A stretch of DNA of 64,000 nt, taken from contig NZ_KB891208.1 in assembly GCF_000373365.1 (NCBI RefSeq), positions 1 through 64,000 on the forward strand, read 5' to 3'. Position numbers and translations under genes: made by a program. The DNA comes from Parafrankia discariae (GTDB lineage Bacteria; Actinomycetota; Actinomycetes; Frankiales; Frankiaceae). Under the pieces are notes generated by a model. That model saw only the letters and a program-made list of their open reading frames with translations. It did no database searches and was not told the origin of the DNA. Of the stretch, positions 3 to 44,219 are shown in pieces. Each line of letters starts with the position of its first letter. Position 1 is the stretch's first letter.

Positions 3-2744
3 GCGCACGTTCGGGGGGTCTCCGGGGTCTGGCGGGATCTCACCGAGTCGGTGAACTCGATGGCCGGCAACCTCACCAGCCAGGTCCGCAACATCTCCGC
101 GGTGACCCGGGCGGTGGCCCGCGGCGACCTCTCGCAGAAGATCACGGTGACCGCGCAGGGCGAGATCGCCGAGCTGAAGGACACCGTCAACACGATGGTG
201 GACCAGCTCTCCTCCTTCGCCGCCGAGATCACCCGGGTCGGCCGCGAGGTGGGCGTCGAGGGCAAGCTGGGCGGCCAGGCCACGGTCGCCGGGGTCGCGG
301 GCACCTGGAAGGACCTGACCGACAACGTCAACCAGCTCGCGTCGACGCTGACGATCCAGCTCCGCGCGATCGGCGACGTGTCCACCGCGGTGACCCGCGG
401 TGACCTGACCCGCTCCATCACGGTGGAGGCCGAGGGCGAGGTCGCCGAGCTCAAGGACAACATCAACCAGATGATCGCCCGGCTGCGGGAGACCACCGAG
501 GTCAACGCCCAGCAGGACTGGCTCAAGTCGAACCTGGCCCTCATCGGCAGCAAGATGCAGGGCCAGCGCGACCTCTACACCGTCTGCCAGATGATCATCA
601 GTGAGATGACGCCGGCGGTGAACGCCCAGCAGGGCACGGTCTACCTGCTCGACTTCATCGAGGGCGACAAGCTGCGCTACGTCGCCGGCTACGGCTCGGT
701 GCCGCGGCGCCGATCGGACGGCACGTTCCTGTTCGGCGAGGGCCTCATCGGCCAGGCGGCGCTGGAGAAGAAGCGCATCCGGGTCGAGGACGTGCCCGCC
801 GGCTACCTCAACATCCGCAGCGGCCTGGGCGAGGCCCCGCCGTGCGACCTGGTCGTGGTTCCGGTCATCTTCGAGAACCAGGTTCTCGGTGTGATCGAAC
901 TGGCCTCTTTCACCCCGTTCTCCGACCTGCATCTCACGCTCGTCGACCAGCTCGTCGACACCATCGGCGTCGTCCTGAACACGATCATGGCGAACGCCCG
1001 CACCGAGGAGCTGCTGGCCCAGTCGCAGCGGCTGACCCAGGAGCTGCGCTCGCAGTCCGTCGAGCTCCAGCGCACGAACAACGAGCTGGAGGAGAAGGCG
1101 GCGCTGCTGGAGGAGAAGAACCAGGAGATCGAGCTGGCCCGGATCGGGCTGGAGGAGAAGGCCGAGCAGCTCGCGCTGTCCTCGCAGTACAAGTCGGAGT
1201 TCCTGGCGAACATGAGCCACGAGCTGCGCACCCCGCTGAACAGCCTGCTCATCCTGGCCAAGCTGCTGGCCGACAACCCCGACCACAACCTGAGCCAGAA
1301 GCAGATCGACTTCGCCGAGACGATCCACTCCGCCGGCTCCGAGCTGCTCGGGCTGATCAACGACATCCTCGACCTCTCCAAGGTCGAGGCCGGCAAGATG
1401 AACGTCGACGCCGGCCCGGTGCGCACCGCCGCGCTGTGCGACGCGGTGGCGGGCGTGTTCGGGCCCACCGCCGAGGAGAAGGGCCTCACCTTCGAGATCA
1501 GCGTCACCGAGGACGTGCCGGACGAGTTCGTCACCGACGAGCAGCGCATCCAGCAGGTGCTCAAGAACCTGCTGTCGAACGCGGTCAAGTTCACCGACGC
1601 GGGTACCGTCCGGCTGGATGTCGCCGTCGCCCCGTCGGAGACCCCGTTCGTCGCGCCGAGCCTGCGCTCGGCGCCGATGGTGCTGTCCTTCGCCGTCACC
1701 GACACCGGGATCGGGGTCGCCGCCGAGAAGCTCAGGATGATCTTCGAGGCGTTCCAGCAGGCGGACGGCACGACCTCGCGCCGCTACGGCGGCACCGGCC
1801 TCGGGCTGTCGATCAGCAAGGAGATCGCCCGGCTGCTCGGCGGGTCGATCGCCGTCTCCAGCCAGATCGGACAGGGCAGCACGTTCACCCTGTTCGTCCC
1901 GTCGGTGATGCCCTCGGAGGCGCCGGTGGGCCCCCACCCCGGCGAGCCCGACGGTGTCCTGATGATCGTGGACGGCGCCGTCCAGTCGCGGCCGCGGGCC
2001 GACGGCGGGGGCGACGGCCGCGGGCCGGTGCTGGCCGGTGTCGAGCGGGCCGCCCTCGTCCCGGCGGAGCGCCGGCCGGCGGGGCCGGAGACACCCGGCG
2101 ACGCGGCACACCGGGAGGGCACCGGCAAGGCTCCCGCCGGCCCGGTCAACGGGGCGGGCACCACCCGGCAGCGTGACGGCGAACGGGTCTACGGCACCCC
2201 CGGCCGGCCCGGCGAGCCCAAGGCGGTCCGCAATCTGTCGCGGACCTCGTGGTCGGGCCGGGGCGGCACCGGGTCGGGCGGCGAGCGGGCGCCCGCCGAG
2301 GGCACCCCGTTCCTGCTCGACCCGCCGGCGCCCGTGCGGCCGCCGACGCCGAACACCGACGGCGGCGACCCGCTCGTGGGCGCCAGCATCCTGGTGGTCG
2401 ACGACGACGTCCGTAACGTGTTCGCCCTGACCAGCGCCCTGGAGATGCATGGGATGCGGGTGCTGTACGCCGACAACGGCCACGACGCCATCCGGATGCT
2501 CCAGCAGGACGGCACACCGGTGCACCTGGTACTGATGGACGTCATGCTTCCGGGCATGGACGGCAACGCGACCACGCTGGAGATCCGGGCGATGCCGGCC
2601 TTCGCGGCGCTGCCGATCCTCGTGCTGACCGCCAAGGCGATGCCCGGTGACCGGGAGAAGAGCATTTCCGCCGGTGCGAGCGACTACATCACCAAGCCGG
2701 TGGATCTTGATTTCCTGCTCGGAGTGATGCGGTCGTATCTGTGA
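3..2744 (+). CDS. multi-HAMP hybrid sensor histidine kinase, 5' truncated
   Basis: The frame is open from base 3, and the first codons continue a HAMP repeat, so the true start lies upstream of the window. Visible order: at least two and a half HAMP repeats (to about residue 150 from base 51), a GAF domain (about 170-310), a Glu-rich coiled coil, a HisKA domain with motif [10 protein letters not shown] (phospho-acceptor His codon at 1218), an HATPase domain with N box, DTGIG and GGTGLGLSI, a low-complexity Gly/Pro/Arg linker of about 150 residues (bases 1950-2370), and a receiver domain with [12 protein letters not shown]. No membrane segment is visible, so it is probably a cytoplasmic phosphorelay kinase. 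A response regulator follows 139 bases later and is the likely partner. The stimulus is unknown. Confidence 0.93.
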
Positions 2745-3689: not shown

Positions 3690-4436
3690 ATGGCGGGCGG
3701 CGACCCGCACGCGATCGCCGCCGCGGATCTGCCCCCGTTGCGGCTGCCCTACGCCGACGGCCTGATCACCATCGACCGGGTCCGCCGCGCACCGGACTCC
3801 CCGGTCTGCCGGGTGCGGCCCGGAGACCCGGCGGAGGGCTCGATCGTGACGCTGGTCGACTTCGTCACGGCCGACCCCGCCCAGGCCGCCCGCACGGCCA
3901 CCGCCCTGGTGCGCACGGCCGACCTGACAGCCGTCGCCGTGCACGCGCGCTACGCGCCGACGGCCGTCGCGGCGCTCGCGGTCTGCTTCGCCGGCCGGGT
4001 CCGCGACGCCCGGGCCGGCCGCGACCTGTCGGTGCGGATCGTCCTGGCGGACCACCGCCCGGAACTCTCCGGCGGGCTGGTTAGAGTGCCGCACATCGTG
4101 GCCGTTCACGGCTGGCCGAATGGTCCGAGTGGTCCGCAGGGTGGTCCGAAGGGGCCCGTGGGGGTGACGGACCGGGTGGTGTGGGAAATCATGAGCGCGG
4201 ACCAGCACCGGGCGTGGCTGGGCGGGTTTCCCGGCCCGGATCGGGATGGTCTGGAGCGTCATCTGGGCGGGCTCGTCGCACTCGCCGGGCTGGTAAGGGC
4301 GTCAGGTACGCAGGTCCCGCACCGCGAGGAGGTTCTCCGCGCGCTCGCCGGCGGCCCGCTGACGACCGAGGCGGTGCACCGCCATCCCGGCCCGCTGCTC
4401 GCCGCCGCGGCCGTCCTCGGGAACCGCGAAGCGTAA
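3690..4436 (+). CDS. hypothetical protein
   Basis: 248 residues, family not recognised. The sequence alternates beta-like and helical stretches (for example LTAVAVHARYAPTAVAALAV), with no signal peptide, membrane segment or metal motif. The ATG follows a G-rich but weak ribosome site (GAGGGGGCGGG). It lies between a response regulator and a Ser/Thr kinase, both on the same strand, with gaps of 161 and 106 bases, so a signalling link is possible but unsupported. Codon use matches the neighbours, which argues that it is a real gene. Confidence 0.65.
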   Translation: MAGGDPHAIAAADLPPLRLPYADGLITIDRVRRAPDSPVCRVRPGDPAEGSIVTLVDFVTADPAQAARTATALVRTADLTAVAVHARYAPTAVAALAVCFAGRVRDARAGRDLSVRIVLADHRPELSGGLVRVPHIVAVHGWPNGPSGPQGGPKGPVGVTDRVVWEIMSADQHRAWLGGFPGPDRDGLERHLGGLVALAGLVRASGTQVPHREEVLRALAGGPLTTEAVHRHPGPLLAAAAVLGNREA

Positions 4437-41894: not shown

Positions 41895-42812
41895 ATGGTC
41901 ACCGCCGCGCATTCGTCCCGCGTCGGTCCTGAACCGGTCGGCGTCGGTCCTGAACCGGTCGGCGTGGGTCCTGAACCGGTCGGTGTCGGCGTGGTCGACC
42001 TGCGGCGCGGGGCCCGTCTCCTCGGCGGCAGCCATCATTACGAGGGTGATCGCCTCGTCACGGGCTGGCATTCGCACGACCTGCACCAGATCGAGTACGC
42101 GATTTCCGGGGTGGTCGAGGTCGAGACCGCCGGCACCCACTATCTGCTGCCGCCGCGGCAGGCCGCGTGGATCCCGGCCGGGCTCGAACACCAGGTGACG
42201 ATCGACTCGGCGGTCCGCTCGATCGCCGTGCTGTTCGACACCCGGCTGATCGACCGGCCGGGGGACCGCGCCCGGATCCTCGCCGTGCCGCCGCTCGTCC
42301 GGGAGATGATCATCTATGCCCGGCGCTGGCCGATCACCCGCCCGAGCGGCGATCCGCTGTCCGACGGCTTCTTCCGCACGCTCGGCCACCTCGTCGTCGA
42401 GGCGCTCGGCCACGAGACTCCGCTGAGCCTGCCCACCTCGTCCGACCCGGTCGTCGCCGCGGCCATCTCCTACACCCAGCGCCACCTCGACGCCGTCTCC
42501 GTGGCCGAGGTCGGCCGGGCGGTCGGCGTCTCGGAACGCACCCTGCGCCGCCTGTTCCGCACCGCCCTCGGCCTGTCGTGGCGGCACTACCTGGTGCAGG
42601 CCCGGCTGCTGCGGGCGATGGCGCTGCTCGCCGACCCCGCCCGGTCGGTGCTCGAGGTGTCGACCGCCGTCGGCTTCGAGAGTCCGAGCGCCTTCGCCCG
42701 GGCGTTCGCCCAGTACTGCGGCGAGCGCCCGTCGGCCTACCGGCAGCGGATCGGGGCTGTCTCCCCGCCTCCGGCCCCGGTGGGACGGCGCCCGTCCCGC
42801 GACGGGCGCTGA
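41895..42812 (+). CDS. AraC family regulator with cupin sensor
   Basis: 305 residues from ATG 41895. N-terminal GVGPEPV repeats (21-bp units) precede a cupin-like domain with GWHSHDLHQIEYAISG and LLPPRQAAWIPAGLEHQV. The C-terminal two-HTH AraC domain (about 195-290) has VAEVGRAVGVSERTLRRLF and LEVSTAVGFESPSAFARAF. Lacks the N-terminal arm of arabinose AraC. It is divergent from the amidohydrolase gene, its likely target, and 125 bases before the leader peptide. Confidence 0.9.
   Translation: MVTAAHSSRVGPEPVGVGPEPVGVGPEPVGVGVVDLRRGARLLGGSHHYEGDRLVTGWHSHDLHQIEYAISGVVEVETAGTHYLLPPRQAAWIPAGLEHQVTIDSAVRSIAVLFDTRLIDRPGDRARILAVPPLVREMIIYARRWPITRPSGDPLSDGFFRTLGHLVVEALGHETPLSLPTSSDPVVAAAISYTQRHLDAVSVAEVGRAVGVSERTLRRLFRTALGLSWRHYLVQARLLRAMALLADPARSVLEVSTAVGFESPSAFARAFAQYCGERPSAYRQRIGAVSPPPAPVGRRPSRDGR
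41920..41982 (+). repeat. 21-bp tandem repeat, three units
   Basis: Units at 41920, 41941 and 41962 are GCGTCGGTCCTGAACCGGTCG with a single change in the third. They encode GVGPEPV in frame near the AraC N-terminus. Confidence 0.9.
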
Positions 42813-42901
42813 CCGCCCCCGCGCCGCGTGGCCGTGACCGGGTGACACCTGGCAGCGGCGGACCTGGCGGGGGCGTAAGAACGCTATTTCTACCAAAGTG
42901 G

Positions 42902-42931
42902 TTGACAAATGGTGTCGCCAATACCTACGTT
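42902..42931 (+). promoter_or_regulatory. promoter of the leader peptide/tauD-like transcript
   Basis: TTGACA (42902-42907) and TACGTT (42926-42931) are 18 bases apart, and the ATG at 42938 is 7 bases after the -10 box. Transcription would thus start at the ATG, giving a leaderless mRNA. Confidence 0.65.
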
Positions 42932-42937
42932 CTGTTC

Positions 42938-43021
42938 ATGGCCGAGCGCCCGCGCCTTGTTCGTCGTGCTCATGTTGATCTCCGTCGCGTCGCCAGCGCG
43001 CTCTGTCTACCGGCCGGCTGA
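42938..43021 (+). CDS. leaderless leader peptide, VDLRRVASALC type
   Basis: 27 residues: MAERPRLVRRAHVDLRRVAS then ALCLPAG. The HVDLxRVxSAxC core is shared by many short actinobacterial ORFs upstream of sulfonate, taurine and cysteine genes, annotated as putative leader peptides. The single Cys codon near the end suggests a Cys-responsive attenuator. Here it precedes a TauD-family gene by 274 bases. The promoter position shows that the mRNA is leaderless. A known type, but its mechanism in this genus is not shown. Confidence 0.8.
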   Translation: MAERPRLVRRAHVDLRRVASALCLPAG

Positions 43022-43295
43022 CCGCCCGCCGCCCACTCGGAACACCGAACTTCTGCCATTCCTGGTGGATTAACGCTGGCCGGGGCCTCCCCTGTCGCCC
43101 CGGTGGCCCGTAAAACGCGCTCCACCACCTTTTACCCACCCGCGCCCCGTCGTCGGGAGGGTGACCGGCCTGCGTGTCGCGTGTTCGGAATCATTCCTGA
43201 CTCCCGGTGTCGCGCCAGCCTGTTCCGAGCCGCGTTCTCGGGCGGTCTTTCCTCGTTTTCCAGCACGTCTTCACCGCCCGAAGGGAAATGTGACG
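43022..43295. other. untranslated leader between leader peptide and tauD-like gene
   Basis: 274 bases without a gene, less GC-rich in parts. It should contain any attenuator hairpins, but I see none that is decisive. Includes GGCGGTCTTTCC and similar pyrimidine-rich stretches. Confidence 0.4.
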
Positions 43296-44219
43296 ATGAC
43301 CAGCCGAGTCCAGGCACTGATAGACGTCCGGCCGTCGTCCGGCCACACCGGCGCCGAGATCCACGGTGTCGACCTGCGGGAGGAGCTCGACGACGCGACC
43401 GTCGCCGAGATCCGGTCCGCGCTGCTGACCTGGAAGGTGGTGTTCTTCCGCGACCAGAACCTGGACCACGCTCAACATGTGGCGTTCGGGCGGCGCTTCG
43501 GCAGGCTCACCCCCGCTCACCCGTACGAGAGCACGCCCCCGGAGGGGTTCCCCGAGATCCTGCCGGTTGACCGCCGGCGCTACGCCGAGTTCGTCGGCAA
43601 GCGGAAGGTCACCCACGACAACGGGTGGCACACCGACGTGACGGCGCTGGTCAACCCGCCCGCCGGATCGATCCTGCGCGCCGACGTCGTCCCGCCCTAC
43701 GGCGGCGACACCGCCTGGACGAACCTGGTCGCCGCCTACCAGGCCCTGCCTGAGCCGCTGCGGACACTGGCCGACAGCCTGCGCGCGCGGCACAGCTTCA
43801 ACCTGCAGGTCTTCGACGGCAGCGAGTACGGGAAGCGGATCGCGTCGAACCCGCTGGTCGCCATCCACCCGGTGGTCCGGGTACACCCGGAGACCGGTGA
43901 GCGGGCCCTGTTCGTCAGCCCCAGCTTCACCGCGCGGGAGAACGAGATCATCGGTCTGTCCGCCCGGCAGAGCCACCGTGTCCTCGAACTGTTCTACGAG
44001 CAGATCGCCCGGCCGGAGTTCACGGTGCGGTTCAGGTGGAACCCGGGCGACATCGCCTTCTGGGACAACCGCGCCACGGCGCATCTCGGGCCGTCCGACC
44101 TCGGTCACCTCGACTTCGACCGGGTTCTCTACCGGGTGACCCTCGAGGGCGACGTCCCGGTCGGTGTCGACGGGGCGGAGTCGGAGCTGGTCGCCGGCCA
44201 GCCGTTCCTCGGCTCCTGA
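43296..44219 (+). CDS. TauD/TfdA family 2-oxoglutarate dioxygenase
   Basis: 307 residues from ATG 43296 (GTG 43290 also possible; AAGGGA is upstream). Motifs: GAEIHGVDLREELDDATVAE, WKVVFFRDQNLDHAQHVAFG, iron ligands His and Asp in GWHTDVTALVNPP, the distal His in NRATAHLG and the 2-oxoglutarate Arg in RVLYRVTL. The family releases sulfite from taurine or alkylsulfonates, or hydroxylates similar substrates. The Cys-type leader peptide before it supports a sulfur-scavenging role. No transporter gene follows. Confidence 0.9.
   Translation: MTSRVQALIDVRPSSGHTGAEIHGVDLREELDDATVAEIRSALLTWKVVFFRDQNLDHAQHVAFGRRFGRLTPAHPYESTPPEGFPEILPVDRRRYAEFVGKRKVTHDNGWHTDVTALVNPPAGSILRADVVPPYGGDTAWTNLVAAYQALPEPLRTLADSLRARHSFNLQVFDGSEYGKRIASNPLVAIHPVVRVHPETGERALFVSPSFTARENEIIGLSARQSHRVLELFYEQIARPEFTVRFRWNPGDIAFWDNRATAHLGPSDLGHLDFDRVLYRVTLEGDVPVGVDGAESELVAGQPFLGS

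What the first reader, a model, noticed from the sequence alone, without database searches (positions are those of the whole stretch)
42902..43295. Leaderless Cys-type leader peptide before a TauD-family gene
A 27-codon ORF with the VDLRRVASALC core sits 7 bases behind a -10 box (TACGTT) with TTGACA 18 bases upstream, so its mRNA starts at the ATG. It precedes a TauD-like dioxygenase gene by 274 bases. Such leader peptides occur before sulfur-scavenging genes. The combination suggests a Cys-dependent attenuator that controls sulfonate use, with the Cys codon near the end of the reading frame as the sensor.
Basis: partly seen in the sequence, partly recalled or inferred. Interest (0 to 1): 0.75.

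Follow-up and report, generated by a model that had tools for sequence, protein, structure and literature searches.

The report
Cysteine-gauge leader peptide before tauD
In a soil bacterium that is likely a relative of Frankia, a tiny gene that likely works as a cysteine gauge sits just ahead of a gene of a sulfonate-splitting enzyme family, and in 146 related tiny genes the key cysteine codon is spelled TGT 142 times although genes around them mostly use TGC, which would make it an unusually sensitive stall point for ribosomes.

Summary
In detail: the 27-codon ORF (42938-43021), its TTGACA/TACGTT promoter and the 274-base gap to a TauD-family gene are there. The peptide passes the cut-off of a known NCBI family (NF042934, putative leader peptide). 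The leader is in 19 of 20 homologous loci (the 20th contig starts too late), with the same promoter spacing, but 16 of those 19 run leader, ROK regulator, tauD. The window lacks about 1.7 kb that its sister genome has there, ROK gene included, which put the leader next to tauD. Hairpins in the gap are not conserved and no intrinsic terminator was found; the RNA after the stop is C-rich and G-poor, which weakly points to Rho. Unexpected: the last motif Cys codon is UGU in 142 of 146 leaders (gene background about 15%), followed by G in only 2 (background 44-47%), while other Cys codons of the same leaders are mostly UGC. The one tRNA-Cys found has anticodon GCA, so UGU needs wobble. I read this as selection for the slowest Cys codon beside a conserved nascent peptide. 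Stalling, Cys sensing and Rho are inferred. New variant of a known kind.

The parts
42902..42907 (+). -35 hexamer TTGACA
   Evidence: Sequence; TTGACA in 19 and TTGAAA in 1 of 20 homologous leaders at the same spacing
42926..42931 (+). -10 hexamer TACGTT (TAnnnT type), six bases before the ATG: predicted leaderless transcript
   Evidence: Sequence; TAnnnT 6-8 bases before the ATG in 20 of 20; not found by the strict E. coli-type scan
42938..43021 (+). leader ORF, 27 codons plus TGA, NF042934 family
42974..43006 (+). conserved core VDLRRVASALC
43004..43006 (+). proposed sensor Cys codon TGT, followed by C
   Evidence: TGT in 142 of 146 leaders, G behind it in 2 of 146; 25 of 25 further leader-like ORFs TGT
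43022..43295 (+). gap between leader stop and tauD, C-rich and G-poor; proposed Rho loading region (inferred)
   Evidence: C-skew 0.217 in the first 100 bases, 0.165 over the gap; 146 leaders mean 0.177 against 0.045 in 69 control gaps
43031..43055 (.). deletion junction: the sister genome has 1,733 bases here (L072 2438-4170: leader-ROK spacer, ROK gene, first part of the ROK-tauD gap), the window 25
43296..44219 (+). TauD/TfdA-family dioxygenase gene
   Evidence: Pfam PF02668, 200 bits; NF007104 225 bits, below cut-off 313
41895..42812 (+). AraC-type regulator gene upstream; a neighbour, role in this locus unknown
   Evidence: Pfam HTH_18; its 3' end is conserved beside the leader in the sister genome

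Best explanation
A 27-codon leader ORF of the known NF042934 family lies 274 bases before a TauD-family dioxygenase gene and likely works as a cysteine gauge: when Cys-tRNA is short, ribosomes would stall at its single UGU codon, and the stalled ribosome is predicted to shield the C-rich RNA behind it from Rho, so that transcription would reach tauD. Steps. (1) Shown: ORF, promoter geometry, family membership, peptide-level selection, near-invariant UGU followed by a base that is almost never G. (2) Inferred: transcription starts at the ATG, so a ribosome is on the leader at once. (3) Inferred: UGU, read by the one tRNA-Cys found (GCA) through G-U wobble and usually with a pyrimidine behind it, is the slowest Cys codon the cell can offer; the conserved peptide R.HVDL.R..SA. 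would sit in the exit tunnel at that moment and add to the stall. (4) Inferred: with enough cysteine the ribosome finishes and leaves at the stop (four codons on in the window), Rho loads on the C-rich RNA and ends transcription. (5) Shown: against its sister genome the window lacks about 1.7 kb with the ROK regulator gene and a conserved inverted repeat with TTGACC before tauD. Inferred from that: the leader promoter is now the main visible promoter of tauD.
For: NF042934 over cut-off. Leader in 19 of 20 homologous loci, the 20th cut by its contig end; promoter geometry 20 of 20; mean dN 0.071, dS 0.995 in the core. UGU 142 of 146, 40 of 41 clusters below 75% identity; gene background 142 of 996 and 34 of 218; [SGA]..C inside genes 39 of 278 TGT. 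Other Cys codons of the same leaders: TGC 109 of 141 over 147 rows, for example 41 of 44 at position -7. Base behind the codon G in 2 of 146, background 44-47%. One tRNA-Cys, GCA, among 46 tRNA candidates. No common pairing partner for the U of UGU. First genes downstream: sulfite reductase 21 of 83 and 8 of 58, rhodanese 18 and 8, luciferase-like monooxygenase 8 and 6, PALP-type PLP enzyme 8 of 58. C-skew after the stop 0.177 against 0.045; no terminator-like site in 42800-43320; T4+ runs within 300 bases in 27 of 146 leaders (no control).
Against: Nothing here measures stalling, cysteine response or Rho. The C-skew control is 69 gaps from a rough gene caller and leaders are related, so its p of 2e-11 overstates. 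In studied mycobacterial relatives the read-out is described as translational (passages). 17 of 83 first-gene models match a family-5 solute-binding protein, not clearly sulfur-specific. In the wider family the strict promoter pattern fits only 10 of 146 leaders (control 1), TTGAC at the right distance 26 (control 5), so a leaderless start is well supported for the tauD loci only. Four of 146 leaders have TGC. A Cys right behind the sensor codon is also TGT in 10 of 14, so the preference is not confined to one position. Of 80 named TauD relatives, 62 show no leader by pattern within the stretch held, among them 60 of the 61 outside the Frankia group by name. The window leader lost its ancestral first gene and may be a relic.
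Confidence: 0.5

Rival explanations
1. Cys-responsive translational control as reported for mycobacterial polycysteine leaders: a ribosome slowed in the leader changes RNA folding and frees the ribosome-binding site of the next gene.
For: Two papers mention this for M. smegmatis leaders (passages); polycysteine leaders share the VDL.R core. In L076 and L079 the likely ROK ribosome-binding site GGAGG can pair with a CCTCC next to it (read).
Against: No shared structure across the leader-gene gap: folds by genus differ (18 of the 19 relatives), and the strong hairpin before tauD in the window is broken in the sister. The window gap is mostly the former ROK-tauD gap. Local fold z-scores after the stop are weak, mean -0.64 at best, with 12 mononucleotide shuffles each.
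Confidence: 0.25
2. A nascent-chain arrest peptide that senses cysteine or a sulfur compound directly, with codon choice secondary.
For: Residues well before the Cys are conserved at protein level: R at -13 in 145 of 146, L at -8 in 139, V or I at -10 in 140, H at -11 in 111 (these were not demanded by my pattern, but the HMM that chose the set favours them; D at -9, R at -6 and S/G/A at -3 were demanded). Low dN/dS at the tauD loci is independent of that choice.
Against: A fixed synonymous codon and a fixed kind of base behind it are not expected from the peptide alone.
Confidence: 0.15
3. In the window the leader is a relic: after the deletion it no longer regulates tauD.
For: ROK gene, leader-ROK spacer and the element before tauD are gone; the gene behind tauD is a DUF4232 protein instead of a binding protein; best ROK match elsewhere 35%, best binding-protein match 34%.
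Against: Leader, promoter and core are intact and near-identical to the sister; tauD is open and 92% identical. L084 also has leader and tauD without ROK between, and L346 (Nonomuraea) a leader about 59 bases before tauD.
Confidence: 0.1

Closest known systems
NCBIfam NF042934 cis_reg_atten, 'putative leader peptide'
   Same: Peptide over the cut-off, 33.6 against 27 bits; short ORF before a gene of a sulfur-linked family
   Different: Only the model's name and description were seen; codon choice, ROK/tauD context and read-out are additions from this work
Mycobacterial polycysteine leaderless attenuators (Ms5788A NF042933, Ms4527A NF042936; Canestrari et al. 2020, not held, known here from citing passages)
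   Same: VDL.R core, leaderless type, cysteine context
   Different: One Cys instead of a run; 15.9 and 24.7 bits, both under the cut-off 45; 274 bases to the gene
Cys-rich uORFs before cysA2, Rv0485 and nirA (Shell et al. 2015, PMC4633059, passages read)
   Same: Small ORFs on leaderless mRNAs before cysteine-linked genes; attenuation proposed
   Different: Cys clusters; translational coupling discussed; no UGU rule in the passages read
uORFC-8-2 before cysS in Rhodobacterales (PMC8632094, passages read)
   Same: uORF with Cys codons as proposed sensor
   Different: Two tandem Cys codons, UGC dominant, intrinsic terminator; here one UGU and no terminator found

Membership tests
NF042934 leader peptide | HMM score over the curated cut-off of 27 bits | tested here: met
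   33.6 bits, 32.1 in the six-frame search
NF042934 leader peptide | short ORF shortly before a gene or operon (recalled description) | tested here: met
   27 codons, tauD 274 bases on
NF042934 leader peptide | cis-regulation by attenuation | not testable with these tools
   needs expression data
Polycysteine leaderless attenuator (NF042933/NF042936) | score over cut-off 45 | tested here: not met
   15.9 and 24.7 bits
Polycysteine leaderless attenuator (NF042933/NF042936) | run of Cys codons | tested here: not met
   one Cys codon
Polycysteine leaderless attenuator (NF042933/NF042936) | leaderless transcript | tested here: inconclusive
   promoter geometry fits in 20 of 20 tauD-locus leaders, 10 of 146 by a strict pattern in the wider set; no RNA data
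Classical terminator/antiterminator attenuator (trp type) | intrinsic terminator between leader and gene | tested here: not met
   0 terminator-like sites in 42800-43320
Classical terminator/antiterminator attenuator (trp type) | several regulatory codons in the leader | tested here: not met
   one Cys codon
Rho-dependent leader control (tnaC-like logic, recalled) | C-rich, G-poor RNA after the leader | tested here: met
   146 leaders 0.177 against 0.045 in 69 gaps; window 0.217
Rho-dependent leader control (tnaC-like logic, recalled) | Rho dependence | not testable with these tools
   needs Rho inhibition or depletion
Taurine dioxygenase (NF007104) | score over cut-off 313 | tested here: not met
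   225.4 bits; TauD/TfdA family member only

The most novel reading that the evidence does not exclude
Actinobacteria hold a regulon-wide sulfur gauge in which one codon does the sensing: UGU, the wobble-read cysteine codon, fixed together with a following pyrimidine and a conserved nascent peptide that poises the ribosome to stall there, with Rho as read-out. Codon choice itself is the selected sensor part.
Probability: 0.35. Interest if true: 0.8.

Novelty: new variant of a known kind. Interest (0 to 1): 0.6.

Why it matters
The family model names these peptides only 'putative leader peptide'. A synonymous codon kept in 142 of 146 leaders against a background of about 15% is a sharp, testable sign that decoding of one codon is the sensed quantity: a single base change (UGU to UGC) in a reporter would test it. 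The window locus adds a natural experiment, a deletion that left the leader as the main visible control of tauD.

Tried and rejected
Conserved hairpins in the gap: window 43056-43310 aligned with four relatives gives a consensus of -15.6 kcal/mol with 27 pairs, 10 of them with a change on both sides in at least one sequence, but on a poor alignment (mean column identity 56%), and the strong window hairpin 43238-43246/43273-43281 is broken in the sister genome. Not taken as a structure.

Intrinsic terminator: none found. RNA pairing as the cause of UGU: where the U pairs with probability over 0.3 (87 of 146) the partners are scattered. Rfam at gathering scores: only a tRNA in the window. ROK remnants: best tblastn E 0.078 in the L084 gap and 5.6 in the window gap. 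Leader within 1,500 bases of TauD relatives: only 2 of 30 loci, one of them the window itself, which first looked like absence; wider stretches showed it further upstream.

Choice of the leader set: 169 loci were given: 101 from the window's family (98 of the 295 matches and three weaker own-genome matches) and 68 of the 86 other-genome matches, mostly from the top of the lists. Seven gave no match to my pattern: L058 and L061 have a TGT leader; L106, L174 and L197 have TGT; L217 has Gly at the place and TGT two codons before; L119, under the cut-off, has no Cys there. Duplicates were merged (162 to 147) and one wrong-frame row (L147) dropped, giving 146; the true L147 leader has TGT. The downstream tally used 141 of the 146, with gene models from a rough caller.

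Literature: ten searches (listings seen) and passages of six papers (PMC4633059, PMC8079986, PMC13236596, PMC8632094, PMC9031893, PMC9094748) showed nothing on UGU choice in these leaders. The key paper (Canestrari 2020) is not held and may already show it.

Full report
What is there. The window holds a 27-codon ORF at 42938-43021, MAERPRLVRRAHVDLRRVASALCLPAG, behind TTGACA (42902-42907), 18 bases, TACGTT (42926-42931) and six bases. A TauD/TfdA-family gene starts at 43296 (Pfam TauD 200 bits; 225 bits against the taurine dioxygenase model with cut-off 313). An AraC-type regulator gene ends at 42812. The peptide passes the cut-off of NCBIfam NF042934, 'putative leader peptide'. The leader is real and of a known kind.

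Where it comes from. The same-genus genome G003 has the contig length (399,968 bases) of the Parafrankia soli record, and its TauD is 92% identical to the window's. The window is likely a Parafrankia.

The family in this and other genomes. G000 has twelve matches at E up to 1, six over the cut-off. All 35 genomes searched in the family, the own one included, have a match over the cut-off; of 296 genomes drawn from the phylum 19 have a match at E up to 0.001, 15 over the cut-off. First genes behind ten of the eleven other own matches (L009 not tested): DUF4395, Cys/Met PLP enzyme, two luciferase-like monooxygenases, sulfite reductase, a permease followed by an NMT1-type binding protein and another TauD, a short-chain dehydrogenase followed by a TauD relative, and three without a clear sulfur link (cupin; FAD/solute-binding protein; AAA/LuxR). 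In larger sets sulfite reductase (21 of 83, 8 of 58), rhodanese (18, 8) and luciferase-like monooxygenase (8, 6) recur, but also a family-5 solute-binding protein (17, 1).

Homologous loci. I fetched wider stretches around 20 TauD orthologues. The leader is in 19; the 20th contig (L088) begins inside the ROK gene. In 16 of the 19 the order is leader, ROK-type regulator, tauD; L084 has no ROK gene between; in L085 and L086 tauD genes lie before the leader and ROK follows it (L078 by eye; Pfam ROK run on L072 and L080). ORFs like a binding protein and a permease follow tauD in many of them (by eye; Pfam on L080 and, permease only, L072). The promoter geometry is kept in 20 of 20 leaders, the window's included. 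The core has mean dN 0.071 and dS 0.995 over 171 of 190 pairs, so the peptide is under selection. Among 80 named TauD relatives a leader by pattern is in 18: 17 of the 19 Frankia-group records and 1 of the other 61, Nonomuraea L346; in four of the 18 (L291, L293, L307, L325) it lies behind tauD.

The deletion. Against the sister genome the window aligns to 43030 and again from 43056; in between the sister has 1,733 bases and the window 25. Missing are the leader-ROK spacer, the ROK gene and the first part of the ROK-tauD gap, which in L072-L075 carries an inverted repeat and a TTGACC (read; operator or promoter is inferred). No close ROK or binding-protein copy was found elsewhere in the genome (best 35% and 34%). 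That it is a loss in the window, not a gain elsewhere, is inferred from the ROK gene in relatives of four genera. The gap 43022-43295 is thus mostly the old ROK-tauD gap.

The codon. In 62 of 62 leaders found by a peptide pattern the last motif Cys codon is TGT. In the HMM-chosen set it is TGT in 142 of 146: 86 of 86 in the window's family and 56 of 60 in others. The four exceptions are three polycysteine leaders (L116, L118, L228) and L203. Clustering leaves 40 of 41 at under 75% identity and 32 of 32 at under 70%. Genes in the same stretches use TGT in 142 of 996 and 34 of 218 Cys codons, and in the context [SGA]..C in 39 of 278. The 20 tauD-locus leaders are 20 of 20 TGT. Twenty-five further leader-like ORFs, 17 of them from those tauD loci, are all TGT, as are the 18, which overlap with these. 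Other Cys codons in the leaders are TGC in 109 of 141, except right behind the sensor codon, where 10 of 14 are TGT. The base behind the codon is G in 2 of 146 against 44-47% in genes, and C or T in 135. Ser at -3 is AGC in 103 of 118, which may only reflect that AGC and GGC (Gly in 22) are one step apart.

Reading of the codon result. All 46 tRNA candidates of the genome were looked at; one is tRNA-Cys, anticodon GCA, so UGU is read by G-U wobble. That wobble codons and a 3' pyrimidine are read less efficiently is recalled knowledge, not from a call. RNA pairing does not explain the choice: the U has no common partner. I infer selection for the slowest Cys codon. The +4 preference could also be a preference for the next residue (Arg 71, Pro 27 of 140).

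Read-out. The 100 bases after the leader stop have C 42.1% and G 29.3%, skew 0.177, against 0.045 in 69 control gaps. T4+ runs within 300 bases occur in 27 of 146 (no control) and no terminator-like site is in the window stretch. Folds after the stop are not shared between genera. This favours Rho over an intrinsic terminator, weakly. Translational control as in mycobacteria (passages) remains open.

What is known. Cys leaders in actinobacteria are published (Shell 2015, passages; Canestrari 2020, cited only). The UGU rule was not found in ten searches, whose listings I saw, nor in passages of six papers. Verdict: a new member of a known family, with a variant feature, the fixed UGU, that I could not find described.

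Noticed in passing
G000 C173, L098 1076-5150: A second leader (MSGQAVLVDRPHVDYGRVASALCPRCR) heads an operon of permease, an ORF that looks like an ABC ATPase (not searched), an NMT1-type binding protein and another TauD relative in the same genome.
   Followed up: partly
L072 about 3960-4000 and the same place in L073-L075: Between ROK and tauD of relatives lies an inverted repeat (TTTCC..CGATC.GGAAA type) next to TTGACC, a possible ROK operator and promoter; it is absent from the window.
   Followed up: partly
L097 655-699 (minus) and 960-1016 (plus), reverse-complement coordinates: Two leader-like ORFs point away from each other, motifs 261 bases apart, one toward an ORF that looks like a luciferase-type monooxygenase, the other toward a dehydrogenase and a TauD relative; both have TGT.
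   Followed up: no
L346 (Nonomuraea roseoviolacea), Cys codon at 3927: A leader lies about 59 bases before a TauD gene outside the Frankia group; TGT followed by G, one of the rare G contexts.
   Followed up: no
L102, L103, L104, L116, L117, L118, L228: Polycysteine leaders of other families mix TGT and TGC in the run; in 7 of these 7 the first Cys of the run is TGT.
   Followed up: partly
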